From: Isoetes taiwanensis
Lineage: Eukaryota > Streptophyta > Lycopodiopsida > Isoetales > Isoetaceae
NCBI GenBank assembly: GCA_021234155.1
Contig: JAJEKV010000011.1
Span: forward strand, 10,023,712-10,087,711
Length of the DNA: 64,000 bases
Direction of reading: 5' to 3'
Shown in pieces: positions 5,899 through 60,430 of this stretch; position 1 is the first letter of the stretch; the number at the start of each line of letters is the position of its first letter. The translations under genes and the position numbers were made by a program. The notes under the pieces are model-generated. The model was not told where the DNA came from and ran no database searches. It saw only the letters and a program-made list of their open reading frames with translations.

Positions 5899-6099
5899 AT
5901 TCACTATGTTAAATTGATTTTGTAATTATTCCAGGTATACTTCTTTTCTAATACGAAGCCATATTTTTTTGGCAGGCATGTCACGAGAATAACTGTAGTA
6001 TAAGCCCTAAATCTGGGGTGTATCGCATGTGCAAAAGACAAAGAAAGTACATCCTGCTATGGATTTCATCTCAAAGTTCAGTTAGTCATTGTTTGAGTC

Positions 6100-6593: not shown

Positions 6594-7453
6594 GAAACAA
6601 ACATAGATAAACTCTGAGGTAAAAATCAAAATAAAATAAAAGTACAAAATGAATGATTTGTTATTGCAAACCATATATTTTAAATTGCATAATTTATAGG
6701 CTCCAAATTTAGACTTTGAGCCTGAGACTCCGAATACCCTACTTTGATTAATGGATTTGATTAATGGAGGTACTAAAAATCCTGCTAATCAATGCTTTTT
6801 AAGATGTTTGGAGAAGATATGGTAGACAGAGCAGTGTCAAAAGCAGTGTATCATTTGGCTGGAGGACATATCCTTTACCAATACTATGTGCCTAAGAACA
6901 TAACATCAGATCCCTGAATACATTTGAACTTTGAACTTTTCAACATTTGAAATGTCAACAATGTGTTTCTAAAAATACTGTGATACAGAAAACCACTGTG
7001 GATAATGCATTTATGTTGAATGTAACTACTTCAAAAGCCTTAAGAACATAACCATGTTTATATCGTGATTGACTTTACACATTGAAATTCACCATTACAA
7101 ATTGAAGTTATCTCAACTGCTGCGAATGCAAGGACTTTCAATACAAGCAATCACTTCTGAACATCATAGACACAACAAACATAATGAAATATCATGCCAA
7201 ACATTTTCAAAAGAGCTCCTGCACGATGAGATACCTTAACCAATAAAGAACGAAGATGTATTAGCAACATTAGATACATCATGTAATAGTAACAGAATCA
7301 GGCGTCACAGGGTTCTGTTAAAAGACAATCCCTTCATTAGCAGATTTCAATGTATACAAAAACGTAATTCAATCATAATTCTGATATCATTTTCATAGAT
7401 AAGAAATTTACCAAGCTCGGATGAGTATGAAGATGCGGCATATTATCTTTCTT
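6594..7453. other. No gene seen
   Basis: AT-rich sequence with no exon, RNA gene or repeat that could be supported. Confidence 0.5.
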
Positions 7454-7860
7454 TCATTCACTTCCAGTGCCTGCCATATGTTCCACGAAATCCTCCAAAG
7501 CCCTTTTTAACAAGCCATCTTTCATTTGAGCTTTCTCCGCTGCATCACGAAGCCTTTCCACATTATTCCTGGCAACCTTTCCTCTACATCCCCTCATTAG
7601 ATCTTCGATAGCTTTCTGAAGCTTCTCTTCAGTTATTTTTTCCTTTGAGAACGTCACGTCTATATTTCTATCTTCAACAATAATCTTGCAGTTAGTACTC
7701 TGGTCCACTTCAAATGGCCATTCAATCATTGGCACGCAACTGTAAATGCTCTCCATAACAGAACCCCAACCGCAATGAGTTAGAAAGCCTCCAATAGAAG
7801 CATGGCCTAAGACCAACTGCTGGGGCTTCCAAGCCGCGATGCGGCCTAGCCTCATCACTT
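7454..7860 (-). pseudogene. UDP-glycosyltransferase, last exon only
   Basis: About 134 codons encode the C-terminal domain of a plant family 1 UGT, including most of the PSPG box that binds the UDP-sugar: W-K-P-Q-Q, then HASIGGFLTHCGWGS, then a P-M-I-E-W-P segment and DQSTNCK. The usual CGWNS is CGWGS here. A plausible splice acceptor (TTTTTAG) precedes the frame at 7861, and an in-frame stop lies just upstream. No first exon (acceptor-binding domain) is visible within several kilobases, so this is an isolated exon or a truncated copy rather than a working enzyme. Family members glycosylate small molecules such as flavonoids and hormones in the cytosol. Confidence 0.8.
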
Positions 7861-7949
7861 CTAAAAATGTTTGTTAGAATGCAGAAAATTCTCCAGCAAC
7901 AGAGCCAGCCCTCATCACCCATAAAATGGCTGCCTGCTAAGTATTAAAC

Positions 7950-8060
7950 CCCTAGCCAATGCAGTTACAGATACTATCATGGGATTTGAACCCACAAATC
8001 AGAAAGCATCATAGGCGAAAGAACAAAAGGGCAACAAGTTGAACTACAACCAGCTGAAAA
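7950..8060 (-). mobile_element. tRNA-derived SINE-like head
   Basis: The minus strand has an A-box-like TAGTTCAACTTG (8035-8046) and a B box GGTTCAAATCC (7982-7992), spaced as in a Pol III promoter. It does not fold as a functional tRNA by eye, so a tRNA-derived SINE or a tRNA pseudogene is the best reading. Confidence 0.45.
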
Positions 8061-26967: not shown

Positions 26968-29900
26968 TCAGAATTCAATAATTTCTGGACAGAAGAAGAG
27001 ATGTGAAAGAGATTCGCTAGCCTGGCACCCAAGAGGACATTGGTCTGTAGACACAATTCCTCTATGGACCAGCTTCACTTTATTGTTGAGACCTCCTTGG
27101 AGAGCCTCCCATCTAAAAAATTGTATTCTCCTAGAGCATAAGGTTTTCCAGGAGTTTGCTAAGAGGAGCTTAGCCGCTGATCCATTCACTTGAAGCCTAG
27201 CCTCTGCTTTAAGAGGAGAGTCATCACAAAGGGCCCGATAGATACTTGCAACATTGTATGTCTCCTTACCTGCACAGGACCACTTTTCCTCAGGACCAGT
27301 AGCCCCTGAGAGAAGCTTAATATTATCTAGAATTTTTCGTAGTATCTTTCTATCTCCCTTCCCTACTCTTTGCACTTTGAGTCTAAATTCCATCCAAGAG
27401 ATCCATCTATCATTTTCCCAAAGATGTTGCAATTTTAAGATCCCATGGTCTCGCCATTTCTTAAAGATGCGAGGATGAACTAATGCCAAGGGACGTCCAT
27501 TCTCTTCCCATACATGAATGTTCCAGAATATACTGGCTTTCCCAGCCTCTTGAGGTATAGTCAAGGGGGAGCATACTATTTGCACCTCCCTCCAAGCATA
27601 AAGAATACGCCTCATGACTGGGGAAGTGCCAGGGGCCACCTTAAAGTTACAAAAAGAGGTCCTAGTTCATCCCTAGGAAGAGATGGTTTACCTTGAATCT
27701 TGCACAGATCAAACCAGTGCTTAACAAATGCCAAAACAGGAGATGTACCCCCTTGTAAAACTCGTCAGACAGATCTGGCCGCCAGAGCTTGAGCCTGCGT
27801 GAAAGGGTCCTTACATCCTATCCCTCCATCCCTTTTATCTCTACATAGCTCGGACCAAGCAATGTGAGCCATACTCCCCCAGATGAACTTTCTAATGATA
27901 ACCTGTATTTGATTATATATTCCTTTCTGGGCTACCATCACTGACGAGGAATATATGTGAGAGCTGGCCAGAACAGCATTAGCAACTCTTACTCTTCCTG
28001 CTACAGATAATCCTTTAGAAGACCATAACCCAACCTTTTTTCTAAGTTTGTCTAAAATAGGAGTCCAGAGACCCTTCATATTATCTGAGACAGAAAGGGG
28101 CAAACCCAATAGCTTAACTGTTTCCCCTGCAGCCACGACTGGGAAGCCCAATCCATTAGCACGAGGGTCAATATCTCCCCTAAAGCCCATAAAACGGTAC
28201 ATTTGGTGGCATTTAGCCCTATGCCTGATATAACCTCAAACGCAATCAATATCTCACGAAAGGAATAAAAGCTGCCATCGTCATACCTGAGGAACATAAA
28301 GGTGTCATCCGCATATTGCATGATTGTGAGTTTTTTGGCTTGACTCGGTAAAACCAGACCACTGATGCCCCCTTCCAAGACTTTGAGATTAACCATCCTT
28401 GTGAGAAGGTTGGCCATAATTAAAAAAAGGCGGGCAGCCCTGCCAAATATCCATCCTGAGATCAAAGAGACCAGAAGGTTCACCATTAACCAAGACAGAT
28501 GCAGAGGCAAATTTGTTCATTCCCATTGAGATGTCGATGAACTGCTTATTGAATCCCATGTGGCTCATCACTTCTCACAGGCCATCCCACCTAAGGGAGT
28601 CATAGGCCTTTCTAAAATCCATCTTAATAAGTACACAACTTTGTCGTGTAGATCTGCACCAATGCATTCCTTCTCTAGCCGCTAGGTAATTGTCCAAAAT
28701 ATATCTACATGGCAGAAAAGCTGATTGCTCCCTTCCAATAACCCTGTTTAAGATAGGCTTAAGATGGTTGGCGATGCCTTTCATGATTACCTTATATAAG
28801 ACGTTTGTTAGTGCAATGGGACGCCACTCCCCGAGTGATAGAGGTCTAGAAACTTTTGGGACCAAGGTGATGAATCCTGCCGCTAGAGTTGGATGTAATG
28901 AGCAAGAGGACCAAGCCCCCCAAACAGCCTTCACAAAGTCTGGTCCAAGAGCGTTCCAGAACTCCACAAAGAATTCAGGAGGAAAGCCATCAGGGCCTGG
29001 GGACTTACTAGAGGCCAGAGAGCATAGTACTTTAAATATCTCCTCTTCGCCCGGCTGACGCAATAAAGTTTGGTTGTCATCCACAGTAATCTTATGTGCC
29101 CAATCAATCTGGGCCAACCAAAGAGAGATTTGGGATTGATAAGAGGATGGGAGATTGTCTGCTTTGAATTGAGCCTGAAAGCTGTCCCGAATAAACGCCT
29201 TGATACCCCCGGGATCAGTAAGTATATTTTGACAATTATCCTTAATTGAACTGATACTGTTCTCTGCTAATCTGGCCCCTGCCATTCTAAAGAAGCACTT
29301 AGAGTTTTCATAGTCTGACTCTGCGTACCATTTTGTTTTGGAACGAACTGCAGCCCCCCTAGCTTCCTCCTCCTCAATAGCTTTGGCTTTTGTTTCCAGT
29401 TCCTCCTCTAAGGATTGCTTGTCTCTGTTATGGGGATCAAGTAACAGATCCTGCTTGACTGCCCTTAGAAGGTTATACACGACATTTTTTTCTTTCTTGA
29501 ATTTCAAGCACTTCTTCTTGCCCCATTTCTTGATCCACATTTTCATAAGGCTAATCTTTTTAACCCAAGCCTTCATGGAAGGGAGGCATTCCGTATTAGT
29601 TAGAGAGGCCAGGAAAGTCCTAAAGGGTCTGCAGAATGCCTCCTTCCCTAGTAGGGAGGTATTAAACTTGAAAGGCACATTCCCTCTTATTCTTTTAGTA
29701 GGGATACTCTCCAACACTAGCTTTTGTGGCACATGGTCTGAATGCGAGAAAGCAAGCTCTCCTTCAATATAACATCTGTTCATGAAGGAGGCTGTCCTAT
29801 TAGCCATGTAGAACCTGTCTAGTAAGCAGTATATTCTGTCATGCCCCTTCTGTTTATTAGACCAGGAAAATGCAGCGTTAGATGGAGGAATTAGGGAGAA

Positions 29901-30422
29901 GCCAACGCTGTTTAAAAGAGAGTTCCACGTAACTTCTTCCTCTTGTAGCAAATTCATGTGCAATCCAATTTTTTGATCCCATACATCTGTCATATTTAGA
30001 TCCCCTCCAAGGATCCAATTTTCGACTCCAAAACCTTGATGAGTTATCCAGAGCTCAATCTCTCTCCACATAGCTGCCCTTTCTGCAGGTATATTAGAGG
30101 TATAAATGTTGATGAGCCCCCATATAGAATTATTTGTTTCAAAAATTACAACCTGCCATCTACCACTTCCCCCTGCATATTGATACTTTTGGACTTGTCC
30201 CTTCCATAAGATACAAGTGCCTCCTTTAGTTCCTTCAGCCGCACAACTAAAGGAGGAGTAATTACCTTCAATCCAACTGCCAATAGACCTGGCCTCAAAG
30301 TCTGGAAGTCTATGCTCCTGTAGAAGGATGACATCCGCCTTCATAGACCTGATAGCTGCTAACACTCGCCCACGCTTAAGAACACCCTTGATGCCACGCA
30401 AATTCCATGAGACAATAATCAT
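26968..30422 (-). pseudogene. LINE ORF2, endonuclease plus reverse transcriptase, broken
   Basis: The first 615 codons (30422-28575) hold an APE-type endonuclease (MIIVSWNLRGI, LLQEHRL, GGDLNM, SHSDH). The start of the reverse transcriptase follows (SPGPDGFPPEFF, WRPIALTNVLYKVI, LIKMDFRKAYDSLRW). A TGA at 28575-28577 stops it, but the same frame continues (VMSHMGFNKQFID), then shifts. The active-site MQYADDTFMFL is at about 28310-28340 in another frame. Further shifts lead to the C-terminal zinc-binding zf-RVT region (27639-26968, SLSHLFFCPEI). ORF2 normally nicks target DNA and copies the element RNA at the nick. Confidence 0.92.
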
Positions 30423-32155
30423 AAGTTGAAAGTTGAGGGACGGCCAACTATACCATTGTCATCAGCAGAGTTGCTAAAAGAAGAGGTCGAAGCTTTCTTC
30501 CTTTTCATCTCACCTAAGTTATCTGGATTCATATTTGCATCCAGCTTATTTTTCTTACCTATTAAAGCAAATGGGTTCTCTAGCATCTCCATGTCATCTA
30601 CTGTATCTGTATCAGTATCTGCCCAATTGAAGTTGCCTTTATGATTTTCCAGAGCCGATTCAAGGAGCCCTGCTCCTCGTGTATTCTTGGTTATCATACC
30701 TGCGAGAACCCCCTTCTCAATAGAAGATACCTCTGAGATATACTTAGACAGAGCTGACATTGGTTGTGGAGAGTCTACACATTTAGAGTTCACCATGTCA
30801 TGGGAGCCTCTAGATTTCCTGGCCAAATTTCTAGCTCTTATACCATGTTTGGAGGCCACCACTTGCCATTGAGTCTCCCCACCCAAGGTGTCCATTTTAG
30901 AACTTGGCACACTCGGGTTCGCGTTTCCAGGCACACCGGATGAAGAAGGGGTAGCGAAAGCTGGTTCGGGAGCGGGAGTAAATGGGGGAGTGAACGCAAC
31001 CTGGAGGGGAACATGTGTCCCTTGAGGGGCTTCTCTCTGTGTGTCGTCTTCAGTCACATGCACATGCTCTCTGTCATTGCCCTCGGAGGCATTTTGATCG
31101 TTGACGTTTGCATGGCTTGGTTTGATCACTTCTTCTAGTTCCACATTGGGGAACATCCTCCTTATTTTCCATCCATTTAATAGCTTGAGTAAAAACTTAA
31201 AGCAACACATTCCACTTTTCACAGTCACTCCTTTGGGGATCTGCGTGTTGGCTGTGATAGCAACACAGATTCTAGGCCCTTTGGCAATAGAGTGAGATAC
31301 ATATGAGTCTAATGTGTTGGCAATAGACTTTAGGAACTCCGGGACTAATAGGTCTGGTGGAAGATACTCTATTTCAAACCAGCAAGGGATTTTGATAGCG
31401 GAAAGCTTATTAGGGAGAAAGCCTGGCGTGTAAAACTGGTACAAAATGAAGCCTCCTGCAAATGGGTCTGCTGCACGGGCAACTAATCTATCCACAGCTG
31501 CTTCACTGTCAAACATGATGAGGAAAAAGTTGTTACCCAGTGCCTTTAGCGATTGGTGTTGGGCCAAACCTAACCTCTTCAGGTGAGCTGATAGCCATGA
31601 GTTTAACCTGCGCAAGTCCAGGAAGCCTCCAGTAAAGAAGCCCACTACTGAGCGCGAGATCAAACTTTCCAGATACCTTTTGTGCATCTCGTGATCAATT
31701 TCAGCCACTGGGAAATTATTTTCTGTCTCCACATTAATGCCATTGACAAATCCAGGCTCATTATTTGTAGTTACTACCCCAGGGTTCTGAAAGAGACCTT
31801 TCTGTAACACTTGGAGAGCCTCCGTGACTCTTGTGCTTTTGTTAGTAGCATGGGTTTGCTTTTGAATCCACTCCGAGAATCTCGGCTTGTTCACTATTCT
31901 CACTGAATCCTGTCCTTTCCAAGCTGAACCCTTTGGATGATTCACCCTGTTTTGTGTAAAATTCCCTTGGCTAGCATCATTCCCATCATTATGATGCCCT
32001 GATCCAATATTCTTTCCCCTGTTTACTGCCCTGCTTTCTAGAGATGAATAATCCACCTCGGTTTCTTTCTTGTTTACTTCAGTTTCTACTTCTTCCATAG
32101 GTGAAGCTTCCATGGATGATTCTGACCTGCTTGTATGGGTATTCCCTGTCCACAT
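30419..32155 (-). CDS. LINE ORF1 protein, DUF4283-type
   Basis: An intact 578-codon frame. Residues of about 160-310 (SRSVVGFFTGG, NNFFLIMFDSEAAVDRL, IPCWFEIEYLPPDLL) fit the DUF4283 RNA-binding fold found in ORF1 of plant L1 elements. The N-terminus is Ser/Asn/Glu-rich and disordered, and the C-terminus is charged. I see no CCHC zinc knuckle, which many plant ORF1 proteins have after DUF4283. ORF1 proteins coat the element RNA. The stop codon overlaps the ORF2 start as ATGA, suggesting ORF2 is made by re-initiation. Confidence 0.85.
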   Translation of the reverse strand: MWTGNTHTSRSESSMEASPMEEVETEVNKKETEVDYSSLESRAVNRGKNIGSGHHNDGNDASQGNFTQNRVNHPKGSAWKGQDSVRIVNKPRFSEWIQKQTHATNKSTRVTEALQVLQKGLFQNPGVVTTNNEPGFVNGINVETENNFPVAEIDHEMHKRYLESLISRSVVGFFTGGFLDLRRLNSWLSAHLKRLGLAQHQSLKALGNNFFLIMFDSEAAVDRLVARAADPFAGGFILYQFYTPGFLPNKLSAIKIPCWFEIEYLPPDLLVPEFLKSIANTLDSYVSHSIAKGPRICVAITANTQIPKGVTVKSGMCCFKFLLKLLNGWKIRRMFPNVELEEVIKPSHANVNDQNASEGNDREHVHVTEDDTQREAPQGTHVPLQVAFTPPFTPAPEPAFATPSSSGVPGNANPSVPSSKMDTLGGETQWQVVASKHGIRARNLARKSRGSHDMVNSKCVDSPQPMSALSKYISEVSSIEKGVLAGMITKNTRGAGLLESALENHKGNFNWADTDTDTVDDMEMLENPFALIGKKNKLDANMNPDNLGEMKRKKASTSSFSNSADDNGIVGRPSTFNL

Positions 32156-47895: not shown

Positions 47896-48091
47896 AACAG
47901 CACAGCGTGTCCGACGGCTATGCCTGAGACGCGCCCTTCATTCTTTTAGAGGGTCGGTCGCCATAGCCAACCCCGGCGCCCACAGCACAATTTTCATCGC
48001 CAAGGTATTTGTCAGTAGTAGGTATCTTTATTGTTTCCCTTTTATTCTTGTCGATTCATAAAAAAACCCTTGAATTTGGAAAAAATTGGTC
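47896..48091. promoter_or_regulatory. Divergent intergenic region, recombinase gene and ELC
   Basis: Only 196 bp separate the two initiation codons on opposite strands, so both 5' UTRs and promoters must overlap here or lie in each other's gene. No TATA box can be assigned with confidence. Confidence 0.5.
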
Positions 48092-49357
48092 ATGCCAGCC
48101 ATGGCATCAGGTCCGGCTCCAACTTCTTCTCCCACATCACATGCATCTATGCAGTTTTTGAATTCCGTTCTTTCCCAAAGGGGGCCCAATGCTTTACCAT
48201 ATGATGAGGATGTTAAATGGTCTATTCGGCAGCATCTTGTCACCGTGATTCAGGAGTTCCCAGGATTGCAAGTTAAGACGGCGCTGTTCACACATAACGA
48301 TGGCAGACAGGTAAATCTTTTGAGGGCAGATGGAACAATACCCATGCATTATCGTGGTGTGAAGTATAATATTCCTGTAGAAATATGGCTTCTGGAGGCT
48401 TATCCAAGAAGCCCTCCCCTTGTCTATGTAACCCCAACAAGGGATATGATCGTTAAGCCGCGGCACCCCTTTGTTGATGCTTCTGGTACTGTGAACACAC
48501 CCTTTTTGCAGCATTGGGTTTACCCTAGGTCGAACTTGATGGAGCTGGTCAGAAATCTCAGCTACTTGTTTGGTGAAGATCCTCCATTATATTCTAGGCC
48601 TCCGTCTGGTCCTGCTAGACCGCCTCCTCCACCACAGACACAGAATTTTCAGGGAATGAATCCTATTCATGCTGGAACAAGTGTTGTAAGTCCTGTGCAA
48701 CAACCTCCAGCTACATCTTCCCCAAGTATTGGTCCACCTCCACAGCTTCCGAGGCCGGTTCCTCCAGCATATGTTCAGCAGCCAAACCCAGCAGCTCCAC
48801 AGCGAACAGAAGATTCAGAAGTTTTCAGGAGAAGTGCTATTGCCACTCTTACAGAGAGAATGCAACGAGATGTTATGGAACTTAGGAAATCATGTGAGGT
48901 GGAGATGGACGAGCTGTTTAACACTCAGGCTTCTTTAAACCAGAGATCAGAACAGCTGAATACATATATCAAGGAAATGCAACAAGAGAAGGAAGGTCTA
49001 GAGCAACAACTTCAGCTTGTTCTTACCAACACAGATGTGTTAGAGACATGGTTGAAAGATAATGACAAAGGAACAAGGGAAATTGACATAGATGATGTTT
49101 TTGAACCTTGTGATCCTCTTTCAAAGCAGATGCTGGAATGTACTGCAGAAGATTTGGCTATTGAAGACATTCTGTATTCTCTTGATAAAGCAGTGCAGGA
49201 TGGAGTGATACCAGCAGAAGCTTATTTGAAGCATATCAGAATGCTAGCCCGGGAGCAGTTCTTTTTTAGGGCAACATCTGTCAAAGTGAGAACAGCGCAG
49301 GTTCAAGCACAGGTATCAGGCATGGCATCCAGAGTTTCTGCTCCTTATGTTTCATAG
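48092..49357 (+). CDS. ELC: VPS23/ELC, ubiquitin-binding ESCRT-I subunit
   Basis: A single exon of 421 codons from the first ATG, close to the roughly 400 residues of plant ELC. An alternative ATG lies nine bases downstream. Residues of about 25-165 form the UEV domain, an E2-like fold without catalytic Cys (VKTALFTHNDGRQVNLLRADG, IWLLEAYPRSPPLVYVTP, HPFVDASGTVNTPFLQHW); it binds ubiquitinated cargo. A Pro-rich linker (about 165-235) and a coiled coil (about 250-320) follow. The C-terminal steadiness box (about 345-405, AIEDILYSLDKAVQDGVIPAEAYLKHIRMLAREQF is its core region) assembles with VPS28 and VPS37. It acts on endosomes and, in Arabidopsis, ELC also influences cell division. No lesion is visible. 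Confidence 0.96.
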   Translation: MPAMASGPAPTSSPTSHASMQFLNSVLSQRGPNALPYDEDVKWSIRQHLVTVIQEFPGLQVKTALFTHNDGRQVNLLRADGTIPMHYRGVKYNIPVEIWLLEAYPRSPPLVYVTPTRDMIVKPRHPFVDASGTVNTPFLQHWVYPRSNLMELVRNLSYLFGEDPPLYSRPPSGPARPPPPPQTQNFQGMNPIHAGTSVVSPVQQPPATSSPSIGPPPQLPRPVPPAYVQQPNPAAPQRTEDSEVFRRSAIATLTERMQRDVMELRKSCEVEMDELFNTQASLNQRSEQLNTYIKEMQQEKEGLEQQLQLVLTNTDVLETWLKDNDKGTREIDIDDVFEPCDPLSKQMLECTAEDLAIEDILYSLDKAVQDGVIPAEAYLKHIRMLAREQFFFRATSVKVRTAQVQAQVSGMASRVSAPYVS

Positions 49358-50226: not shown

Positions 50227-51552
50227 TTTTTTTTTTTTTTTTTTTTTTAGAGTAAGAATTGGTTTTTCCATTAATCAAGAAAAACAGTACATGGTTGACC
50301 TGCTAAAAATAGCATAGATCATTGAAACAAAATGTCCCTAGATTTTATCCATCACCAAGAGGTGAGTGGAGAACTAGTCAAAAGATGTAGTCAGAGTTGA
50401 AGTTTGACTCGTTATGGTAGAAGTCAAAATTTTCAAATAACAGTCTATTGGTGGTAGAAAAAGAGTCACGACCCCAGCAAAATTCTTCAATCACTTGTAC
50501 TAGCCAAAACCAAAACAAGATTAGGAAGCAAGGTTGAGCAAAAGATGTTCAGGTTGGTAGGGATACAATCCCAGGAATTCAGATATAAGATTAAGAGAGT
50601 GGCAAGCTTAAGAGCAAAGGGAGTCCAATTTGGCATTAAAGTATGAGTAGAAAGGTGCAGCAGATCCAATCTTTTTAGCAATGTCATCAATGCAAGAGGA
50701 CTCAATTTCACTTAAGCAGAGTAAGGAACCATATAGATCTGCCAGAAGTCTATGCGTATAGTACTGCTCCCTGTATCTTGAGAACTGATTTTCTGACATG
50801 TAATAGTGGTACATAGATAAAAAGTCAAACATGCAGAACATCTGAGTCACTTCTCTGCAGAAGGCTTCAGGTAGACTTGTTTTCTTGCCTATAACAGATT
50901 CGGATCCATTCATGCTGTTCCAGAAAAGCTCAAGTTCTTGATCTGCATCCTTCTTAGTGTCTCCCAACTCCCCAAGGCTTTCTTTACATACTCTCAGATA
51001 TGCTAGCATCATCACAAAATACAGAGTTAGAATTAATGACACATAAATTAGATACAAACAAATCAAAAGTCCCCCTAAAAGCACCAATTGAGTCCCACTT
51101 CCTGTTATACTTGTTAGCCAATTTCCTTTTGTGAGCTGTTGCAGTAGATTCAATATCAAGCTGGAAATGCATCTTAATCCAAAAGATAGAGAAGTTCTTT
51201 TTACCATACACAACTCTATTTCTTGCTTTCCAAATATTTCATAAGGCAATGAACATAATAGTATTGGCAAAGGCACAATTGTTTTGAATATATTTAAGAG
51301 ATTGCCATTAACTTTCATAGGGAAGAGGTAGCCTAGCTTCTCATTGAACCAAGACCAGAAAGAATTAAGCTTAGGACAGAGAAATATATGTTCAGTGCAC
51401 TCTTCCATACTGCAACCAAGCTGGCAGTTTGGAGAAATATCCTCATATCTCCTGGAGGTCATTTGCAGGGTAGAAATACTTTTGTTTGCCAGTAACCAGA
51501 AAAAGAAACTTACCTTAGGAAAACAATAAGAGTGCCACACTTCATAAAACAG
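50227..51552 (-). mobile_element. 5'-truncated LINE with 12-bp target duplication
   Basis: The minus strand encodes the zf-RVT end of an L1-type ORF2 (KVSFFFWLLANKSIST, then LGCSMEECTEHIFLCPKL, with Cys/His ligands), followed by a frameshifted remainder. A 3' UTR ends in TTACTCT plus 22 A (T-run 50227-50248). AAATTTACAAGA flanks both sides (50215-50226 and 51553-51564), so both ends of the insertion are fixed to the base. Confidence 0.92.
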
Positions 51553-51791
51553 AAATTTACAAGAATTTTATTTGTGAGGAGCCTTGCCAATATCTATCGT
51601 AGTTGGTAGTTATTAAAGATGAAGCAATATTTGCTTTGAGTCGCCAATATTGCAAGCGTGCAACTGAAGAGGTCATAATCTTTCATTTATTTAGGGTGTG
51701 TTAACCTATTGCAAAGTATAAGTCTTACTCGTGGTACATATAATCTTCGCTCAAATTATATACGCCCTAATCTGGTTAGGGTCCCAAGAAC

Positions 51792-51990
51792 GGAAACCTC
51801 CCAAATTTTCCTACTTGGAAACCTCCCCAGCTTTCCTGCAAAGCCTGGGGAGGTTTCCAGTTCTGCTAACTTGGGGAGGTTTCCAGGAAAACTAACCTGG
51901 GGAGGTTTCCAAGATTGTTAACTTTGGGGAGGTTTCCCAAATCTATTATTGTTTATGATATTTTTTGTTGTTAACTTTGGGGAGGTTTCC
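51792..51990. repeat. Left array, seven GGGGAGGTTTCC motifs
   Basis: Copies start at 51792 (reverse, last base changed), 51817 (reverse), then 51847, 51873, 51899, 51926 and 51979 (forward), mostly 25-30 bp apart. The last two are part of a perfect tandem duplication of about 52 bp that runs to about 52020. Confidence 0.95.
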
Positions 51991-52020
51991 CAAATCTATT
52001 ATTGTTTATGATATTTTTTG

Positions 52021-55000
52021 ATCTACGGATAACAGCCACTCATAATAACCTAAAATTAATGTGAGCGTCTAGAATTAATTCTTTCCTCTTTTCGTATGCA
52101 GTTCTATTTTTGTTGCATGTTTTCCTTTTCAGTACATTCTTGAAGCTAGAGGAGGAGCGCACAGATGAGGCCGATTTTGAAGAGCACTTCCAATCTACTG
52201 TTGTTTGTTTCTATGATGCCAGCGGATCCCTTGGATACTAGCGCCTGATTTCGTGCATTGTTTGCTGATTAAACCCTTAGAATCCAGTAGAGGGAAGGAA
52301 TCCAGGGAACATCCGGCTTCCAGGCCAAAAATCCCTGTTGTTTTTGTTTTCTGATGCCAACAGACCCATCCGGCTTCCAGTCCATCCGGCTTCCAGTCCA
52401 AAATCCGGTCCTGGGTTCTGAAGCAGGTTCTTGTCAATCATTTGAAAGCAGGTTTTGAAGCAATTTCTGAAGCAGGTTCTGAAACAGTTTCTGAAGCAGG
52501 TTCGGCCAATTTAAGCCGGCCTTGTCTGACCGCAAATCAGTTTCCCATTTAATGCTTTGTTGCCGCTGCCAAATCTTGCTTTCTTTTGGGTCTTCATCAA
52601 AACCTTCACGTTGATGGGTAAATAGTTTTGCACAAATTTCGGCAGCAAATTTGTGACAGGGATTTTTTTTGTGGCATCTTTGATTCAAGTTTGAATATGC
52701 AGGGAGTAACTGGCTGGCTAATTCAAGGCACACGCTCAAGATTTAAAAGAAAAAAAACCACCATCAGCAAAACTCAGAGATCAAAGATCTCATAGCCTCA
52801 TCGGTTTAATCCTGCCACAGCCCTGAAATCTGGCTAATCTGCAAAGCCGCGGACTTCAAAATCTTCAAACTGCTCTCCTCTCGCACTTTTTACATGATGC
52901 CGGGACAATCTGGAAGTTACTCTCCAGAAACTCTGACCGCTGTAGAGCCGCTATCGGGTGGACTGGCCGCCTCCTCCTCCTTTTATATGAAAACAAACAC
53001 CTACCTAGACTACTCGAGAAGGCGCCATGGCTCGAGAAGGTTTGCAAATTCTAGAAGGCGCCATGGCTTACTGATTAGCTTCCAACGGCTTCTAGAATTG
53101 GAACCTTTGTTTATTTCTGAGTTCTCCTGTTGCAAGTTTGCCTTCTTAAAAGGTAAAATAATCTAATCGACTACTATTTCTTTCTTAAAGAAAGAGAAAG
53201 CAGATTTTGTTTGAAGATTATTTTATAGCTGATCATCCGCTTATCACAGGTTATCAACGGTCCGGTCCTTTTGCAACGTCAAAGTGAAGATTTACTTTGA
53301 AAAAAGAGGCTGACCTGAACGAAAACGAAGGTGCTTGCCTCATCTTGTGGATTTTTGTTGTGGTTTGGATGGGTTTGATGTGGAAATATGGAAACACTGG
53401 TCTGTAAAAAGGGATTTTTCATTTCAAGAAACTTTCCCACTTGAAAATGCTGTAAACAGGGATTTGTTTTGTCCAAAATTTGTTATATACACAGGAATTA
53501 CCTATGTTGTTTTTTGAGAAACCTTTCAAAAGTTGCAATACAAAGGGAAATTATCCATTCTTGTAAATTTCATGAATAGTTATCTTTTGCTAGCATGTTT
53601 TTTGCAATCCTAATGAATAGTATTCATTCCTAATCCCAAATGAATAGTGTTTTCTGCAATCCCTAATGAGTAGTGTTTATTCTCAATCCCAAATGAAATA
53701 TCTAGCATTATAACAGAGGGTTTTTTTTCCTGTTTTTGTACTGTTTTCTCTAAGGTTTTTATATGATTTGGTGGTCGTATTCATCCAGGTGTACTAAATA
53801 GTATTTCTAGAGTGCACCCTTTTGTTAGCCGTTGATTTTAGAAAAGGGGGCAAATCCTGTGGTGGAGGCTTCTTTTGTGGTGGGTGCGAATATCCTCCCA
53901 TTATTTTTAGGGTTTTTTTAGGGTTGTGTGGATTAGGGCCATAACCATAATCGAGGTCTTAGTTTCTAGGGTAAATTTTTGAAGCATTTTTTCGTAAGTC
54001 CTTTTTTGGCGTGCTCCTCTCTATCTCTATCAATGGAGGCAACCGAGATCTGTTCGACCTAAGCGGATATTGTCTCGGGCTGCCCACGATCCTCTATCAG
54101 ACTCATCAATCGGAAGAGAAAGCATCGATGGACTAAAGATGCCTCAAAAGGCCTCGGAAGAAAGTTGCAAGAAATGTTGCCATGAAGAAAAATGCTTGTG
54201 TGTTCGATGCCCCGCATGACGATCCGCTCATTTCAATAATCGTTCTTTGTCGGTTCTCTGACTTCTTCTCCAGCGGATCTAGTAAACATTATGCTCACGT
54301 ATGTTGCCATAAGATCCTTTTCTCTATTGGATTGTTCTGTTTTTCGTATGTTCTTTTTAATTTGATGCATTTGCTCCATCAAATTGATTTACGGGTTCAA
54401 TATTTTGATCTAGATCTCGAGCTAGTTTATATAAAATGCATTTTGTAGAAGATTTTTTTGTGATGGCGACACATCATCAAGTATTGAAGAATGGTTCATT
54501 AGTTTTATAGAATTGAAGATTGTATTCGTGAAATTGTAGTTTCTTAGATAATTTTGTGAGGGGTTTTGTGCGGGACCTCAATGATAAAAAAGATTGGCAA
54601 CGAGTGGTGCGAATTTGGCGGGGCTTATCTTTGTTACATTTGGAACATGCAAATTTCAAGAGAACTTCCTTTGGTTGTCAAGATCTTGCCAAGAAAAGCG
54701 GTAATATATGGCAAAATCGAGTAGATTCATAGAAGCATATCATCTTCCTTATGCGCTTTGATTCTTGTCTTTGTTGCGGGATGTTAAGTTCTTAACAGAA
54801 GATTTGAAGGTGGAATGCGAAGGCAAAGATAAATACAAGTGTGGATCCAACGTTTTTTGGAAATGGGGAAAGCGAGCGGTTCGTAAAGTATAAATATCAT
54901 GGAAACCGAGCGAAGCGAATTAACTTGTGGAAGCATTCTCTTCTTTTTAGCAAATGTGCATCTCGTAGATAGTAATATAGGGCAAAGTAAAAGTTTGCAT

Positions 55001-55797
55001 TGTTTAGAGTACCGTTTTTCCCTTTTAGTTTCAAATTGGCATATATATGAAGCTTTATAGAAAGGAAACCTTGAATTAGCGTATATATGAAAGCATTCTT
55101 ACAATATCAAAATGGCACGTGAAACAAGAGGAACAGCACTCTCCTTTGAATTAGTGTAATTAGAAAAGTAAAATGACCGGAGCTTTTTTTTTTTTTTTCT
55201 TTTGGATTGCAGAAATGCAAACATTTGACATTTAAGAGATAGACACTTGTCCCTCCCGCACTCAAGTCTAAATTAATTTTGGGGTTGCCAAGGCAAGTGG
55301 TGACACCTTGAAATTTAGGCCCCCAGGACTAGGTCTAAATTTTGGGGTGATGACTTCGAAATTTAGGCCCTAGGTCTAGGTTTAAATTTTTGGGTTGTAC
55401 GGAGGCAGTAGACATGGCGGCCACATGACCTCTTTCTAGGTACCCCTCCCCCCTTTTCCAAGTTTTACACGGCGGCCACATGACCTCTTTCTAGGTACCC
55501 CCTCCCCCTTTTCCAAGTTTTAGGGGTGGGCCTTTACGTTAATCACGAAGGTGAGTTTTGGGTACCTTTTTTTGCCCCCTCCTTAAAAATTTAGTGTACA
55601 TTTTGGGAGGCCCTCTACTCTTGGACAAGAATACTCCCATGTCTATTTCTTGTGAGTTCTTGTAAAAGTTGTGCTTATTTTCAAGTTGAAGTGCCCAGTC
55701 CCCACAACATATGACCAAGATGGCATTCTTTAAATATACGACAACATAGGTGCCATGGCAAAGGACATGGTTTGTGCTCTTCACGACTATATTGTTT
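52021..55797. other. Interior of the putative transposon, few features
   Basis: A possible exon at 52134-52241 reads TFLKLEEERTDEADFEEHFQ and ends in TAG, but its family is unknown. 52425-52505 has CTGAAGCAGGTT-like repeats. Two tandem units of about 57 bp start with CGGCCACATGACCTCTTTCT (about 55420 and 55474). No complete gene is seen. Confidence 0.4.
53696..53840 (+). repeat. Dispersed AATATGTAGCATAATAACAGGG repeat, second lone copy
   Basis: Diverged copy of the block at 16867, 19276 and 21383: AGCATTATAACAGAGGG, then GTACTAAATAGTATTTCTAG, GTGCACCCTTT and GCCGTTGATTT. Confidence 0.75.
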
Positions 55798-55860
55798 TAG
55801 GCAAGGCCTTGAAGGGACCAAAAATTTTTTAATCTAACACAAACCATTACATCTAATGTT
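55798..55860. mobile_element. End fragment of the foldback element family
   Basis: GGCCTTGAAGGGACC (decayed hairpin), AAAAATTTTTT and AACACAAACCATTA match the hairpin side of copies 2 and 3. The rest of the element is absent. Confidence 0.65.
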
Positions 55861-55899
55861 TCCGCAAATGAATAGTGTTTTTTTCTTTTTCGCGGACAG

Positions 55900-57520
55900 G
55901 CGAGGTGCGCTAGGCCAGAGTATCTTGTCTGCCAGCAGGATAGCCATTACAGGGCGAGGCTACAGAGACAGGTCGTGGTCGAGTGGGAGAGGAACACGAG
56001 GGTGTACTCTCCTCAGGAGTTAGCTCAGAGATACCCACAGGGGGGCTCACAGTGGATAGCAGATCGTATTCAGGCTCTAGTGCAGATACGAGACGAGGAT
56101 GCAGAGGCTCGTTTTCGTGAGACCCAGAGTAGACTCTTGGCCCGTGATGGCCATATCGATGCAGACGAGGGAGAGGCTCCACACGAGAGACATGCATGGC
56201 AGGTTGAGGATTTACACGGGAGAGATGGAGTAGTAGTTGGAGCAGCAGTCAGTGTCGCAGGTGAGCCTGGTGGGATTGATTTGGGAGCCACGGTGGATCT
56301 TGCATCACATGTAGGGATAAGGCTTGAGACACGTCCATTTGATTCTTGCATCTCCACTGTCCCACCCGTTGATGTAGACCTCCACATCGGGACGCTGCCT
56401 AGTGAGGTTGAGGGCCCTTCGTTACCCACTTCCCGTATTCCCATTCTACCGTTTACCCTTCGTACCACCTCCCTCCCTGACTCTCCTCCTAGACCACCTT
56501 CCCATGCCATGTCTTCACATGTCCCTCCACCTTCCACGACCCCCATTGCTAGACCACCTTCCCATGCCACGTCCTCACATGTCCCTCCACCTTCCACGGC
56601 CCCCATAGCTAGACCACCTTCCCATGCCACGTCTTCACATGTCCCTCCACCTTCCACGGCCCCCATAGCTAGTCCACCTCACCGTCCGCCGATCTTACCA
56701 TTCACCCTTAGTCGCGCCTCCCTTCCTCGCTTCCCTTCTAGACCACCATCTCTTCCTATGTCATCGTATGTCCCTCCACCTTCCACGGCCCCCCTAGCCA
56801 GTTCATGTGCCCATCCACTATCTAGTCTTGTGTGTGACATTCCAGTCCCTCCAGCATCTGCATCTTTCACGCCCTCTATTTATTCTCATGGTCTCTCTTC
56901 TACACCATTATCTCCCTGCACTATGGTACCTTTTACCTCGTTGGCATACCCAGATGTCGCCCCGTCCCTTGGTGCACTATCTAGCCCTGTACGGCGTACC
57001 AGATTGACATTTGGCGAGATGGCCTCTAAGTTGAGAGATACCACAGCACAGATGCTTGCTAGCTTGGCTTCGTCACCAGGTGTTACTGTTTCTAGTGATA
57101 CTCTCGATCTGCCAGATGTGGTGGCATCTATACCATCTTCCAGTCACCCTCACGATGATGCAGTTCCACTTCAGACCGCATTTCATGAGACACAACGTCG
57201 GATTGCTGCGCCCCGTCAGATCGAGCCAGCGGGATCGATCTCTAGACATGATGATGGGGGTAGAGGCAGGGGCAGGGGCAGGGCCAGAGGTAGGGGCAGG
57301 GGCAGGGGCAGTGGGAGGGGGTAGGGTGGAGGCAGAGGCAGAGGTGCATGCAGATGCAGGTGACATAGAGCTTCATATGAGCATGCATGGACTTGTCACG
57401 CCATACCCCCCCTCGGCAGAGGATTGGGCAGAGCTCACAGAGGAGGAGTGGGTGTTTGACAGGGCCCGAGGCCATGGCTTTATCTTTCCTTACCAGCGTG
57501 GTGCCAGTTTGAATCGGTAA
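55900..57520 (+). CDS. Unrecognised Pro-rich protein with RG-rich tail, transposon-associated
   Basis: After an acceptor-like CGGACAG the frame reads ARCARPEYLVCQQD and SPQELAQRYPQGG, an Arg/Glu-rich helical region, then a low-complexity Ser/Pro region. That region has three exact-period 60-bp units (56491-56670; 20 residues each, with SSHVPPPST). It ends in an (RG)n stretch with a stop at 57322-57324. In the next frame the sequence continues WAELTEEEWVFDRARGHGFIF to a donor at about 57519, so a single frameshift in the GGGGCA repeat probably split one exon. The missing start means an upstream exon. No domain is recognised; RG repeats often bind nucleic acid. High GC sets it apart from the surroundings. 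Confidence 0.45.
56491..56670 (+). repeat. Three in-frame 60-bp repeats
   Basis: Nearly identical units at 56491, 56551 and 56611 encode 20-residue Ser/Pro-rich repeats. Partial copies are visible at about 56750-56790. Confidence 0.95.
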
Positions 57521-58674
57521 GTGACTCTTTCAACAGGTCTCATGGTATTGCACATCTCTTTTCCCCTCTCCATCATATTACTCCATACAGCCTGGAAGTC
57601 TCTTGTGTCTAGCAGCATGTTTGCTGCCTCTTCTACAATAGAGGGATGCAAGGGACGAGACCATTCATCATTTTCGGAGAATGGATTGTGGCCATCATGC
57701 CCTTCGCATATGTATATGCTGGCAAAACCATCTTTGCTATGGCATCACTGTACGTAGGCAAAATCCACATCTACTTTTGAAGCTTCTTCTCATCTGCCTT
57801 CCATCCCGTATGGCACATCTTCGGGCATCTCCCCCTCGATGACAAATGTAATCTACACATTTTGTGCCATCTCCCCAGCTTCTCGTATGACGTCGAAGCA
57901 ATCTCACTCTGTGCTCCACCTGCAGCTGTTCCACGCGGCTCTCTAGTAAGTCACATGGAACTTTCTCCTCATGGGTAAATAGGTTTTTTCTACTGATGGG
58001 ATTCACGTGACGGGCATTACATTCACATGTTGCTATGCATTGCCTCACATAATCTTCTGGAATGCCATGAAACTTGGCTCCAAACTGCCATATATTTTTT
58101 ATATTATCTAGGGTAGGGCATATAGGCAGGTGCCCCAAATCCGGATCAACATGGCCTTTAAAAATAATCTCCTTCCACATCCATGATGGTGGGATATAGA
58201 GCCACTTCCCAAAAGTCATGCGTATGAGAAGATTAGTTTCTGGATCAACTTCTAGTTTTTTTTGGAAACTCAACCACCTTTCGATTATCTGTGTGCTTTT
58301 TGGCTTTTGCGACTGCCGAACATACCCAATAGGGAAACTTGGATCAGCGCCTAGGATATCTTCGATGGAGGGCTGGACACGAGTCTTGACGCATTGCACC
58401 ATCAAAGAGTATGATGCTTCCGTGAAAATGTAACCTTCCCTTGAGTTGATTGAAGGTATAGGTGGATATGATCCAACAGAGTCTCCCTCATTCAAATGAT
58501 TGTCATAATCATCAGTAGGTGTTACATGGTCTTCATCATCTACATCCTCAAAACCTGCAGCATTGTCAACATTATCAAAAGCGAAATCACTTACAGTTGC
58601 TTCTGAATCATATAGGGACGAATCAGTGGAGATATCATCTTCAACTCCCTCATTCACGTTACGCTCCAAATCCA
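57520..58674 (-). pseudogene. Transposon-associated protein with H2C2-like zinc motif, frameshifted
   Basis: From the Met at 58674 the minus frame has an acidic N-terminus (DDYDNHLNEGDS), then RWLSFQKKLEVDPETNLLIRM, WLYIPPSWMWKEIIF, and GHVDPDLGH followed by KFHGIPEDYVRQCIATC. Two His then two Cys with this spacing resemble the zinc-binding domain before a DDE integrase core. After about 57900 the frame degrades; a second frame continues with SRPLHPSIVEEAANMLLDTRDFQ and GKEMCNTM to about 57525. I cannot find the three acidic catalytic residues. The promoter would lie in the right motif array. It could be a transposase or an accessory protein. Confidence 0.5.
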
Positions 58675-58737
58675 TGAGATAAATAACAACATCAAAGGAA
58701 CGAAAGATGAAATAGTCGATGGGAATCACGGCGAATG

Positions 58738-58855
58738 GATGAATCCGTGGATGAAGGAAGAACTCGTAGGGACGATTTACTTGAAGAAAAAGCTTGGATG
58801 AATTCGTTGATGAAAGAAGAACTCAAAGAGACGATTTGCTTCAAGAAATAGCTCA
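58738..58855. repeat. Tandem duplication upstream of the minus-strand gene
   Basis: GGATGAAT(C/T)CGT(G/T)GATGAA(G/A)GAAGAACTC and GACGATTT(A/G)CTT(G/C)AAGAAA occur twice, about 59 bp apart, in the 5' leader. Confidence 0.8.
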
Positions 58856-58880
58856 CTTTGAAATTTTATAGACATTTTGT

Positions 58881-59285
58881 GGAAACCTCCCCTAGTTTCT
58901 TTGGAAAGTTGGGGAGGTTTCCATAAAATATTTAAAAAAATAAAAAATAGTCATTAATGTTGGCAACCACCGATGGACTGAAACGCACGAGGACCGAGAT
59001 GCACGGGGGCTAGTCTTGGTCTTCGTGCAAATTTAGAGAGCCTTTTTTTTTTCTTTTGTGGAAACCTCCCCACCTTTCCATGGAAACCTCCCCACCTTTC
59101 CATGGAAACCTCCCCTGTTTTCTTAATTGGAAACCTCCCCAGGTCATCCAGGAAAGGTGAGGAGGTTTCCCTGGAAACCTCCCCTGTTTTCTAATGTGGA
59201 GAAAGTTGGGGAGGTTTCCAGGGAAAGGTGGGGAGGTTTCCAGGGAAAGGTGGGGAGGTTTCCAGGGAAAGTTGGGGAGGTTTCC
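58881..59285. repeat. Right array, twelve GGGGAGGTTTCC motifs
   Basis: Reverse copies start at 58881, 59060, 59082, 59104, 59129 and 59173; forward copies at 58911, 59159 (GAGGAGGTTTCC), 59208, 59230, 59252 and 59274. Most are exactly 22 bp apart. Confidence 0.95.
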
Positions 59286-59315
59286 ATTATCGTATAATCT
59301 TCCTTATATGATGTA

Positions 59316-60430
59316 TCTATTGCCATGACCCATACATGTATCATGTAAACCCATACATGGGTGTAAATGGCGAATTATGGCTTAGTGAAACAGTAACTGT
59401 AACAACACGAACATGTACGTTTCAATTGGATATGTTTCAAACATTGGGGTTCTACTCCAAATATCTACCCACTGGATGATCAATCATTTCACATTTATAT
59501 TTTGCAAATGTGCAACATACTGATGGCTATTTCATGGGCTTCTTAGTAAAAACAATATGTTGCTTTTCTTGCAATAGTTAACTGCTTAAAAAAGTGGATT
59601 GTTCAACAAACTTACTTGTGGCTGTCTCTATATCTAAAGAGTTCTGAAGGTTTTGTTTTAATTAGTGCACCAGTTGTGCAACATGTGCTTGATACTGAGT
59701 TGTGCAACATGTGTTTGATACTCAGATATTGAAGGCATGTAGTGGAAATACTTGGACATTACATAGTAAATAAACCCGAAGCATGATGGGTGGATGACCA
59801 AACAGATGCCGCTACAGGCACCAGCTACAATTGCAAATTTGCAGCATTTTTTAGGTGTCAATCTATGTATAATTTTTGCAAAGATTTGCCACAAAATGCA
59901 GGGGATTTATTGGGTTGTTTCTTGATTTGGGTCCTATAGAGTTGAAATTGTGCGATTTTTTAATGTGGATTCTTCCCTAGAATTCAAAATTGATAGCAAA
60001 TTTAGCTGACTAGAATTGATCATGCCAGTTTTCCGAACCAATTTCTTGGATGTAGTGCAGGCCCTGACACAATACTTCAAACTATTTTTGCATTATGCTA
60101 ATTTGCATTAAAGACTGGTTGAATAGCTCTGTCATAGCTCTCTATGCAATATTTGATGTGAATCCGAGTCAGAAATTAGGGCTGACCATGTTGGAGTAGT
60201 TGCAGACAAAAATATGGAGAATAGATCACCAAGTTAAAAATCTTTCCGATCTTGTTTTGTTTGTTTTATTTAATCACTTGAGTGAGCTTGTTCGACTATG
60301 CGCGAAGGGCAAATTCGGTATTTTGAATCTTTGCAGGGGCATCGTGGGAAATTCAGAAATATGCACTAGCAGCAATTTGACTAACAAACCCCTCAGATTA
60401 ATCCCGGCCTTGAGCATGGACACCATCGGT
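59316..60430. other. No gene seen
   Basis: Only a small tandem duplication of TTGTGCAACATGTG(C/T)TTGATACT (about 59672-59726) is notable. Confidence 0.5.

What the first reader, a model, noticed from the sequence alone, without database searches (positions are those of the whole stretch)
51735..59315. 7.5-kb element bounded by dense GGGGAGGTTTCC arrays
Nineteen copies of one 12-bp motif, in both orientations, are packed into two blocks of about 200 and 400 bp, 7 kb apart. I noticed none elsewhere in the window. Many right-hand copies are exactly 22 bp apart, about two helical turns, as expected for cooperative binding of one protein. The right block sits where the promoter of the minus-strand gene should be. 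Subterminal binding arrays with a self-regulated promoter are established for CACTA elements; this motif, the ends and the two genes do not match that family by eye, so it may be an undescribed DNA transposon or lineage.
Basis: partly seen in the sequence, partly recalled or inferred. Interest (0 to 1): 0.82.

Follow-up and report, generated by a model that had tools for sequence, protein, structure and literature searches.

The report
Mutator-like transposon with family-specific end arrays
The element is a broken copy of a Mutator-type jumping gene in a plant genome, and both of its ends carry a short repeated DNA word that differs from one family of these elements to the next, probably so that each family's own protein finds only its own copies.

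Summary
In detail: 19 motif copies (17 exact) sit in two blocks. They bound a real transposon of 7,545 bp (51748-59292), with a 9-bp target duplication (TATAATCTT) and an unoccupied paralogous site elsewhere in the genome. It is not CACTA. Fuller relatives encode a MULE (Mutator-like) transposase (Pfam PF10551) and, tail to tail, a second gene with a C2H2-like finger. The window copy lacks the catalytic part of the first and the finger exon of the second, so it is a defective derivative.

The unexpected part lies outside the window. Sister families in the same genome (which matches the Isoetes taiwanensis assembly in size) keep the same outer inverted repeat and a similar array layout. Each has its own motif: GGGGA-GGTTTCC, GGAAG-GGTTTCC, YTCTA-GGTTTCC or CATTA-RGTTTCC. 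In 27 sampled loci each motif class is one 100/100-supported clade of the transposase tree, with no exact cross-class copies. Two non-autonomous copies keep little more than the ends.

Best reading: the arrays are cis-acting sites for a family-specific, element-encoded protein. Short subterminal repeats in MULEs (Aedes Muta1) and diverging arrays (Arabidopsis VANDAL/VANC) are published, so this is a new variant of a known kind.

The parts
51739..51747 (.). left copy of the 9-bp target-site duplication TATAATCTT
   Evidence: single copy at the empty site C922:152508-152726 (210/220 identical)
51748..59292 (.). whole element, 7,545 bp, non-autonomous MULE of class A
   Evidence: target duplication plus empty site; shared ends with L002, L005 and L007
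51748..51780 (+). far-end terminal inverted repeat, CGCTCAAATTATATACGCCC...
   Evidence: shared with L002-L005 and L007
51792..51990 (.). far-end array: 7 copies of GGGGAGGTTTCC (2 minus, 5 plus; one with 1 mismatch)
   Evidence: same place in L002-L005 and L007
55888..57520 (+). fragment of the convergent second gene; residues 1-117 of the class B protein, which include the C2H2-like pattern, have no match in 51701-59400
   Evidence: tblastn of L010 gene 2 (residues 118-318, 40% identity); no Pfam hit
57502..58675 (-). N-terminal part of the MULE transposase, with a frame change near 57739; no match to the catalytic MULE domain in the window copy
   Evidence: MULE domain in relatives L008, L033 and L035
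58881..59285 (.). transposase-side array: 12 copies of GGGGAGGTTTCC (6 minus, 6 plus; one with 1 mismatch), five intervals of exactly 22 bp, about 205 bp upstream of the transposase start
59286..59292 (-). remnant (CGATAAT on the minus strand) of the transposase-side terminal inverted repeat; about 33 bp are missing relative to L002, L005 and L007
59293..59301 (.). right copy of the 9-bp target-site duplication TATAATCTT

Best explanation
The element is a defective, non-autonomous copy of a two-gene Mutator-like (MULE) transposon family. SHOWN: the ends, the 9-bp target duplication, the empty site, the MULE domain in relatives, two tail-to-tail genes, one conserved outer inverted repeat in all four classes, and arrays whose motif is fixed within a transposase clade and different between clades (in the loci sampled). 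INFERRED: the arrays are cis-acting binding sites for an element-encoded protein. Each roughly 20-bp unit (GGAAA-N10-TTTCC in classes A, B and D) would be bound symmetrically through its constant outer arms, and its class-specific centre would give family specificity. The outer inverted repeat would be the conserved cleavage and synapsis site for the transposase. The array protein would mark a family's own copies for mobilisation, for protection from silencing, or both, so that sister families in one genome do not cross-react. My best single candidate for the array reader is the C2H2-type protein of the convergent second gene. Sub-probabilities: MULE with paired arrays 0.97; arrays needed in cis 0.8; read by an element-encoded protein 0.75; by the second gene's protein rather than the transposase 0.5.
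For: Element: 9-bp duplications exact in the window, L002, L005, L010 and C1027 (L024+L034), 1 mismatch in L007; of 9 loci given to that is 5 exact, 1 near, 1 unclear (L003), 1 end lost (L004), 1 with no far end found (L009). Empty site 210/220 identical across the junction. MULE PF10551 at E 2.1e-7 (L008), 1.9e-7 (L033) and 7.3e-9 (L035). Two genes: of 113 merged transposase places, 30 have a listed second-gene match within 12 kb and 29 of 30 are tail to tail (0.23 pairs expected by chance). Outer repeat: near-end repeat found within 3 edits in 22 of 27 transposase 5' flanks, in all four classes; exact degenerate pattern 361 times genome-wide, control 0. Motif classes: A, B, C and D each one branch at 100/100; own-class exact motifs 29, 123, 44 and 7, cross-class 0. 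TIR subtype predicts array type on contigs C1-C257: A-type 6 of 6 with an A array, B-type 13 of 14 with a B array and none with A, D-type 0 of 3 with A or B. Conservation beyond the selected core: class A motif positions 1.1-1.8 bits, against 0.1-0.7 in much of the spacer. Cis role: L002 and L004 share little beyond about 140 bp at one end and 550 bp at the other, show no match to transposase or second gene, yet keep both arrays. Which protein: transposase exon 1 is 60-71% identical between class B and classes A, C and D, while the second gene is 47% (B-A) and 39% (B-C) identical over its first ~300 residues; its finger keeps the Cys/His and varies between them.
Against: No binding, expression, methylation or transposition data exist here. 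The class-to-clade match alone would also arise if arrays drift and spread by tandem duplication with no co-evolving reader. The C2H2 assignment is by eye; no Pfam or PDB hit supports it. The second gene's faster divergence is modest at its N-terminal end: 59% between class A and B there (C985) and 52-56% in C-terminal pieces A-C. The transposase's Cys/His stretch is conserved like the rest of the C-terminal half of exon 1 (20-24 of 40 columns throughout 241-400), not specially. No second-gene match was seen in the class D loci searched (L011, L035 joined to L019, and 2.9 kb of L020). In class C the unit spacing differs (gaps of 31 and 12), so the dyad rule is not universal. The degenerate class D arrays rest on 7 exact motifs in 3 loci, and L008, L015 and L020 have only 4 near-copies each, in L020 tied with an unrelated word. 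5 of 10 class A loci besides the window show only one array in the stretch fetched. 83 of 113 transposase places have no listed second gene within 12 kb (both lists are partial).
Confidence: 0.6

Rival explanations
1. The transposase itself reads the arrays. Its N-terminal Cys/His region would bind both the terminal repeat and the many array units, building a multimeric synaptic complex, as the THAP domain of Galileo does on its repeated ends. The second gene would do something else.
For: A Cys..Cys..His-x2-His region (CVDYICHRGG...CGF...GHDGHNP) lies in exon 1 in all four class majority rows. Motif class follows the transposase tree exactly. The constant half GGTTTCC could be the part read by a conserved domain. 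The Galileo precedent includes weak or absent binding between subfamilies (PMC3688188: abstract, section 2.5).
Against: This region is conserved across classes (20-24 of 40 columns identical in all), whereas the array centre changes completely. The outer repeat, the expected transposase site, stays conserved next to diverging arrays.
Confidence: 0.35
2. The arrays are recruitment sites for a sequence-specific anti-silencing protein encoded by the second gene, as in Arabidopsis VANDAL/VANC. They would serve expression of the element rather than the cut-and-paste reaction.
For: Same outline as VANC (PMC5735166, Results section read): a transposon-encoded second protein, tandem motif arrays in noncoding DNA, different motifs in related families. 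One array lies about 205 bp upstream of the transposase start.
Against: The second gene shows no Pfam domain, so neither DUF1985 nor DUF287 of VANC. VANDAL21 motifs are arrayed in one orientation and also lie in introns, whereas these are in both orientations and, in the class A copies scanned, clustered at the ends. Two copies without these genes also keep the arrays.
Confidence: 0.25
3. The arrays are passive: tandem duplications near the ends that drift within each family, or binding sites for a host factor, with no element-encoded reader.
For: 22-bp tandem duplication is evident, copy number varies between copies, and no binding data exist.
Against: Motif positions are conserved while much of the spacer is not, copies occur in both orientations, no exact cross-class motif was found in 27 loci, and end-only derivatives retain the arrays.
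Confidence: 0.12
4. It is a CACTA (En/Spm) element with subterminal repeats.
For: 12-bp subterminal motifs in both orientations near a promoter resemble the En/Spm layout (recalled).
Against: Ends are CG..., target duplications are 9 bp, and relatives carry the MULE domain.
Confidence: 0.01

Closest known systems
Aedes aegypti MULEs Muta1-Muta14 (PMC5225508; passages seen)
   Same: MULE superfamily, 8-9 bp target duplications, short subterminal repeats (Muta1: nine copies of 12 bp; 10 of 12 long-TIR families have 9-15 bp repeats), many non-autonomous copies that share mainly the ends
   Different: Animal host; no convergent second gene is mentioned in the passages seen; Muta1 repeats lie 3-4 bp apart inside a 145-bp inverted repeat, here units of about 22 bp in both orientations inside a roughly 30-bp imperfect repeat; the passages do not describe motif change along a transposase tree
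Arabidopsis VANDAL21/VANDAL6 and VANC proteins (PMC5735166: outline and Results section; PMC10398659: abstract and outline only)
   Same: Plant transposons with a transposase plus an accessory DNA-binding protein; tandem motif arrays in noncoding DNA that differ between related families
   Different: VANC carries DUF1985 and DUF287, not found here; VANDAL21 motifs are arrayed in one orientation and also in introns; the outer inverted repeat here is conserved between classes
Two-gene MULEs: maize MuDR (PMC3276141, passages), Mutyl (Ascomycota) and aphid Spectre (PMC6446971, passages)
   Same: A second gene beside the MULE transposase; Mutyl's second ORF is antisense and its group is listed with a C2H2 finger; Spectre has two ORFs, a C2H2 finger domain and a transposase
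   Different: No related second-gene sequence was compared; no arrays are described in the passages seen
Galileo (P-element superfamily; PMC3688188: abstract and section 2.5)
   Same: Internally repetitive ends holding many binding sites; subfamily-dependent binding
   Different: P superfamily with a THAP domain; here MULE with 9-bp duplications
CACTA (En/Spm) elements (recalled)
   Same: Subterminal 12-bp motifs in both orientations bound by an accessory protein
   Different: Different termini, target duplication and transposase

Membership tests
MULE (Mutator superfamily) | MULE DDE transposase domain PF10551 | tested here: met
   Above the curated cut-off in L008, L033 (class A) and L035 (class D); no match in the window copy itself
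MULE (Mutator superfamily) | 8-11 bp target-site duplication | tested here: met
   9 bp, exact in 5 of 9 loci examined including the window, 1 mismatch in a sixth, one unclear, one end lost, one without a far end in the stretch
MULE (Mutator superfamily) | terminal inverted repeats | tested here: met
   About 30 bp, imperfect: CGATGGTTTTTTCTACGCCCGATTTGGGTTGG against CGCTCAAATTATATACGCCCGATTTGGGTTAG
MULE (Mutator superfamily) | SWIM zinc finger and a Cys/His N-terminal DNA-binding region in the transposase | tested here: inconclusive
   Both patterns are visible by eye, but no Pfam or PDB match to them
VANDAL/VANC | VANC protein with DUF1985 and DUF287 | tested here: not met
   0 Pfam families for the 690-aa second-gene frame at E up to 10; other second-gene fragments gave 0 or one weak unrelated match
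VANDAL/VANC | accessory protein binds its own arrays and removes methylation | not testable with these tools
   needs binding and methylation data
CACTA (En/Spm) | CACTA/CACTG termini and 3-bp target duplication | tested here: not met
   Ends CG..., 9-bp duplication
Muta-type MULE with subterminal repeats | MULE with several short repeats just inside each end | tested here: met
   7 and 12 copies in the window; both arrays also in L002-L005 and L007, 5 of 10 other class A loci at 8-10 kb
Galileo / P superfamily | THAP domain and 8-bp target duplication | tested here: not met
   MULE domain and 9-bp duplications; no THAP match in the Pfam scans

The most novel reading that the evidence does not exclude
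One plant genome holds at least four sister MULE families with interchangeable architecture but mutually exclusive array codes: constant outer arms with a class-specific centre. Each code would be read by the variable finger of the family's own convergent second-gene protein. This would be an independently evolved, VANC-like self-recognition system outside the flowering plants, in which motif and reader can be followed step by step on a tree.
Probability: 0.3. Interest if true: 0.72.

Novelty: new variant of a known kind. Interest (0 to 1): 0.52.

Why it matters
How related transposons living in one genome keep from activating one another, and how a DNA-binding protein and dozens of dispersed sites change specificity together, are open questions with few natural systems. 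Here four sister families share their outer inverted repeat but carry non-overlapping array motifs, in hundreds of array pairs genome-wide for two of the classes, so reader and site can be compared directly. It would also extend the VANDAL/VANC type of arrangement to a lycophyte, if the genome is Isoetes as its statistics suggest. It remains a variation on published themes (Muta1, VANDAL), which limits the surprise.

Tried and rejected
CACTA membership: rejected on ends and target duplication. Ordinary satellite or single arrays: rejected, since 5 of 10 other class A loci show both arrays in the stretch fetched (L002-L005, L007); L001, L006, L008, L009 and L033 show one. Naming the transposase from the window alone failed: no Pfam hit, because the window copy lacks the catalytic part. 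Naming the second gene failed: no Pfam hit for the 690-aa open frame, and only chance PDB matches to antibody chains at E 0.17 or weaker. A profile of transposase exon 1 from three sequences found nothing in the PDB and one irrelevant Pfam hit. Alignment A1 included the second-gene protein by mistake and was not used. In L031 the most frequent 12-mer (32 near-copies) is an unrelated satellite next to the element; its class comes from the core analysis. The search for 'Isoetes' with '1.66 Gb' found no paper; the assembly statistics came from PMC8566536 passages. Paper searches on VANC, MULE arrays, lycophyte MULEs, foldback ends, convergent second genes and finger/anti-silencing were; in the listings (titles and starts of abstracts, not all hits listed) I saw no description of these families, and the library lacks most subscription journals.

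Limits of counts: one search scored 40 of 668 candidates, one search scored 127 of 854, one search scored 150 of 2,618 and one search scored 40 of 106. The pattern searches list only the first places, so one search uses contigs C1-C257 only. The shuffles are two per locus. The 27-locus tree was built from loci chosen among hits to a class A protein; its rows are query-anchored pieces with 226 to 312 of 312 columns filled.
Full report
WHAT IS THERE. The motif GGGGAGGTTTCC occurs 19 times in two blocks, 7 copies at 51792-51990 and 12 at 58881-59285; 17 are exact. The whole window gives 21 matches at up to 2 mismatches, against 3.63 expected. Five same-strand intervals in the right block are exactly 22 bp; the left block uses 26-27 and 53 bp. 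In the window's own genome (1.658 Gb, 1,110 contigs) the exact pair at 22-bp spacing occurs 614 times, and the reversed control 0 times.

THE HOST. Its size and contig number (1,658.26 Mb; 1,110 contigs) closely match the published Isoetes taiwanensis assembly (1,658.30 Mb; 204 scaffolds plus 909 contigs; PMC8566536, passages). I treat that as very likely, not proven.

BOUNDARIES. When 58860-59420 is searched in the genome, 38 of the 40 scored copies (of 668 candidates) stop at query position 405-429, that is at the end of the array. Only the window and one duplicate locus (C1093) match through the flank. Of ten other class A loci cut out at 8-10 kb, five (L002-L005, L007) show both arrays, as elements of about 3 to 6.3 kb; five (L001, L006, L008, L009, L033) show one array in the stretch fetched. 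Outside the arrays lies an imperfect inverted repeat of about 30 bp: CGATGGTTTTTTCTACGCCCGATTTGGGTTGG on the transposase side and CGCTCAAATTATATACGCCCGATTTGGGTTAG on the far side. Nine-bp duplications are exact in the window (TATAATCTT), L002, L005, L010 and C1027, with one mismatch in L007; L003 is unclear, L004 has lost one end, and no far end was found for L009. The window's transposase-side repeat has lost about 33 bp, leaving CGATAAT. The two window flanks joined at one TATAATCTT align across the junction to C922:152508-152726 at 210/220 identity, a site without the insertion, and to C1038 at 85%. The element is therefore 51748-59292. At C1093 the same two flanks lie about 16 kb apart, so that copy is a duplicated locus.

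GENES. The minus-strand frame (57737-58729) has no Pfam match, but it is the first part of a protein found at 854 candidate places (127 scored). In fuller relatives a MULE transposase domain follows: L008 E 2.1e-7, L033 E 1.9e-7, L035 E 7.3e-9. The window copy shows no match to that part and has a frame change near 57739. The plus-strand frame (from 55888) is a fragment of a second gene. Of 113 merged transposase places, 30 have a listed second-gene match within 12 kb, and 29 of these 30 are tail to tail; 0.23 pairs would be expected by chance (83 of 113 have none listed, and both lists are partial). In one or two loci each of classes A, B and C the second gene has near its start a C2H2-like pattern (WFCxHEGC...H-x4-H) whose Cys and His are kept while residues between vary. 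That part has no match in the window copy. The second gene matches no Pfam family and nothing meaningful in the PDB.

SISTER FAMILIES HAVE DIFFERENT MOTIFS. I cut out 20 further transposase loci and, for 27 loci in all, looked only at DNA upstream of the transposase. Over-represented 12-mers reach 4-16 near-copies against 2-3 in two shuffles per locus (the weakest are L008, L015, L020 and L019 with 4-5, and L031's top word, 32 copies, is a neighbouring satellite). Four classes appear: A GGGGAGGTTTCC, B GGAAGGGTTTCC, C YTCTAGGTTTCC and D CATTARGTTTCC with variants. Exact own-class motifs number 29, 123, 44 and 7, with no exact cross-class copy among the 27 loci. In a maximum-likelihood tree of the transposase N-terminal part each class is one branch with 100/100 support, the least possible number of changes. 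Genome-wide, B-type pairs at 22 bp occur 1,321 times and C-type pairs 17 times, controls 0.

THE OUTER REPEAT STAYS THE SAME. The transposase-side terminal repeat was found within 3 edits in 22 of 27 upstream flanks: 2 of 5 class A, 13 of 13 B, 5 of 6 C and 2 of 3 D. A degenerate pattern of it occurs 361 times, control 0. Small subtype differences in the repeat predict the neighbouring array. On contigs C1-C257, A-type ends have an A array in 6 of 6; B-type ends have a B array in 13 of 14 and never A; D-type ends have neither in 3 of 3.

UNIT STRUCTURE. Selecting only on GTTTCC and reading outward, the class-specific half is nearly as conserved as the core in classes A to C, less so in D, while much of the spacer is not. 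In classes A, B and D the commonest unit is GGAAA-N10-TTTCC (gap 10 in 19, 95 and 6 cases), so constant inverted arms flank a class-specific centre; class C departs (gaps of 31 and 12).

MECHANISM. Non-autonomous copies L002 and L004 share little beyond about 140 bp at one end and 550 bp at the other, show no match to either gene, and keep both arrays; L002 also has a perfect duplication. Arrays therefore look needed in cis for movement or survival, not merely as a promoter; two copies are a small sample. Since motifs differ by family while the outer repeat does not, I infer two recognition layers: the transposase on the outer repeat, and a family-specific reader on the array. Transposase exon 1 is 60-71% identical between class B and the other classes, and its Cys/His stretch is conserved like the rest of the C-terminal half of the exon (20-24 of 40 columns in all classes). 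The second gene is 47% (B-A) and 39% (B-C) identical over its first ~300 residues, although the first ~190 residues alone reach 59% between B and A (C985). This favours the second gene as reader only moderately, and the transposase remains a serious alternative. No second gene was seen in the class D loci searched. Whether the array serves cutting, counter-silencing or both cannot be settled from sequence.

COMPARISON. Short subterminal repeats are established in mosquito MULEs (Muta1: nine 12-bp repeats; PMC5225508, passages). Diverging tandem arrays read by an accessory protein are established for VANDAL/VANC (PMC5735166, Results section), but VANC's domains were not found here. Galileo shows transposase binding to repeated ends with subfamily preference (PMC3688188, abstract and section 2.5). 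Two-gene MULEs are also known: MuDR (PMC3276141, passages), Mutyl with an antisense second ORF and a C2H2 finger, and Spectre with a C2H2 ORF (PMC6446971, passages). What I have not seen in these sources is sister families in one genome with the same outer repeat and mutually exclusive array codes. The paper searches used were made, seen as listings.

VERDICT. A real, well-bounded transposon; a new variant of a known kind. It is more interesting for the clade-locked motif code among its relatives than for the single copy in the window.

Noticed in passing
window 26968-32155 and 50608-51540 (minus strand), 4299-5186 (minus strand): Frames resembling non-LTR retrotransposon parts (endonuclease/reverse transcriptase, zf-RVT; by eye); only 50608-51540 was tested (Pfam zf-RVT, E 1.4e-8).
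   Followed up: partly
window 48086-49357 (+): 423-aa open frame that looks like a plant TSG101/ELC homologue (recognised by eye, not searched).
   Followed up: no
L031 (C1049), upstream of the terminal repeat: A class C element inserted beside a dense satellite of GGCATGTTTGAGC-like units (32 near-copies).
   Followed up: no
C1093:2811907-2828689: A second copy of the window locus: left flank 93% and right flank 100% identical but about 16 kb apart, so the element there is longer or holds a further insert.
   Followed up: partly
L022, L023, L024, L027, L029 (class C): Transposases of class C are nearly identical to each other (tree end branches 0-0.045), suggesting recent activity.
   Followed up: no
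L002 interior (about 5900-8690): A non-autonomous element with foreign interior; the element holds a 301-aa stop-to-stop frame, possibly a captured gene fragment.
   Followed up: no
L012, 3606-3670, 5728-6121 and 9042-9131: Further clusters of the class B motif inside the 10-kb stretch beyond the transposase-side array; possibly the far end or nested elements.
   Followed up: no
window 52620-55880: Interior of the element largely unexplained: 53083-53697 recurs in L001, 53146-53841 in L007, and 55-bp tandem repeats lie at 55412-55522.
   Followed up: no
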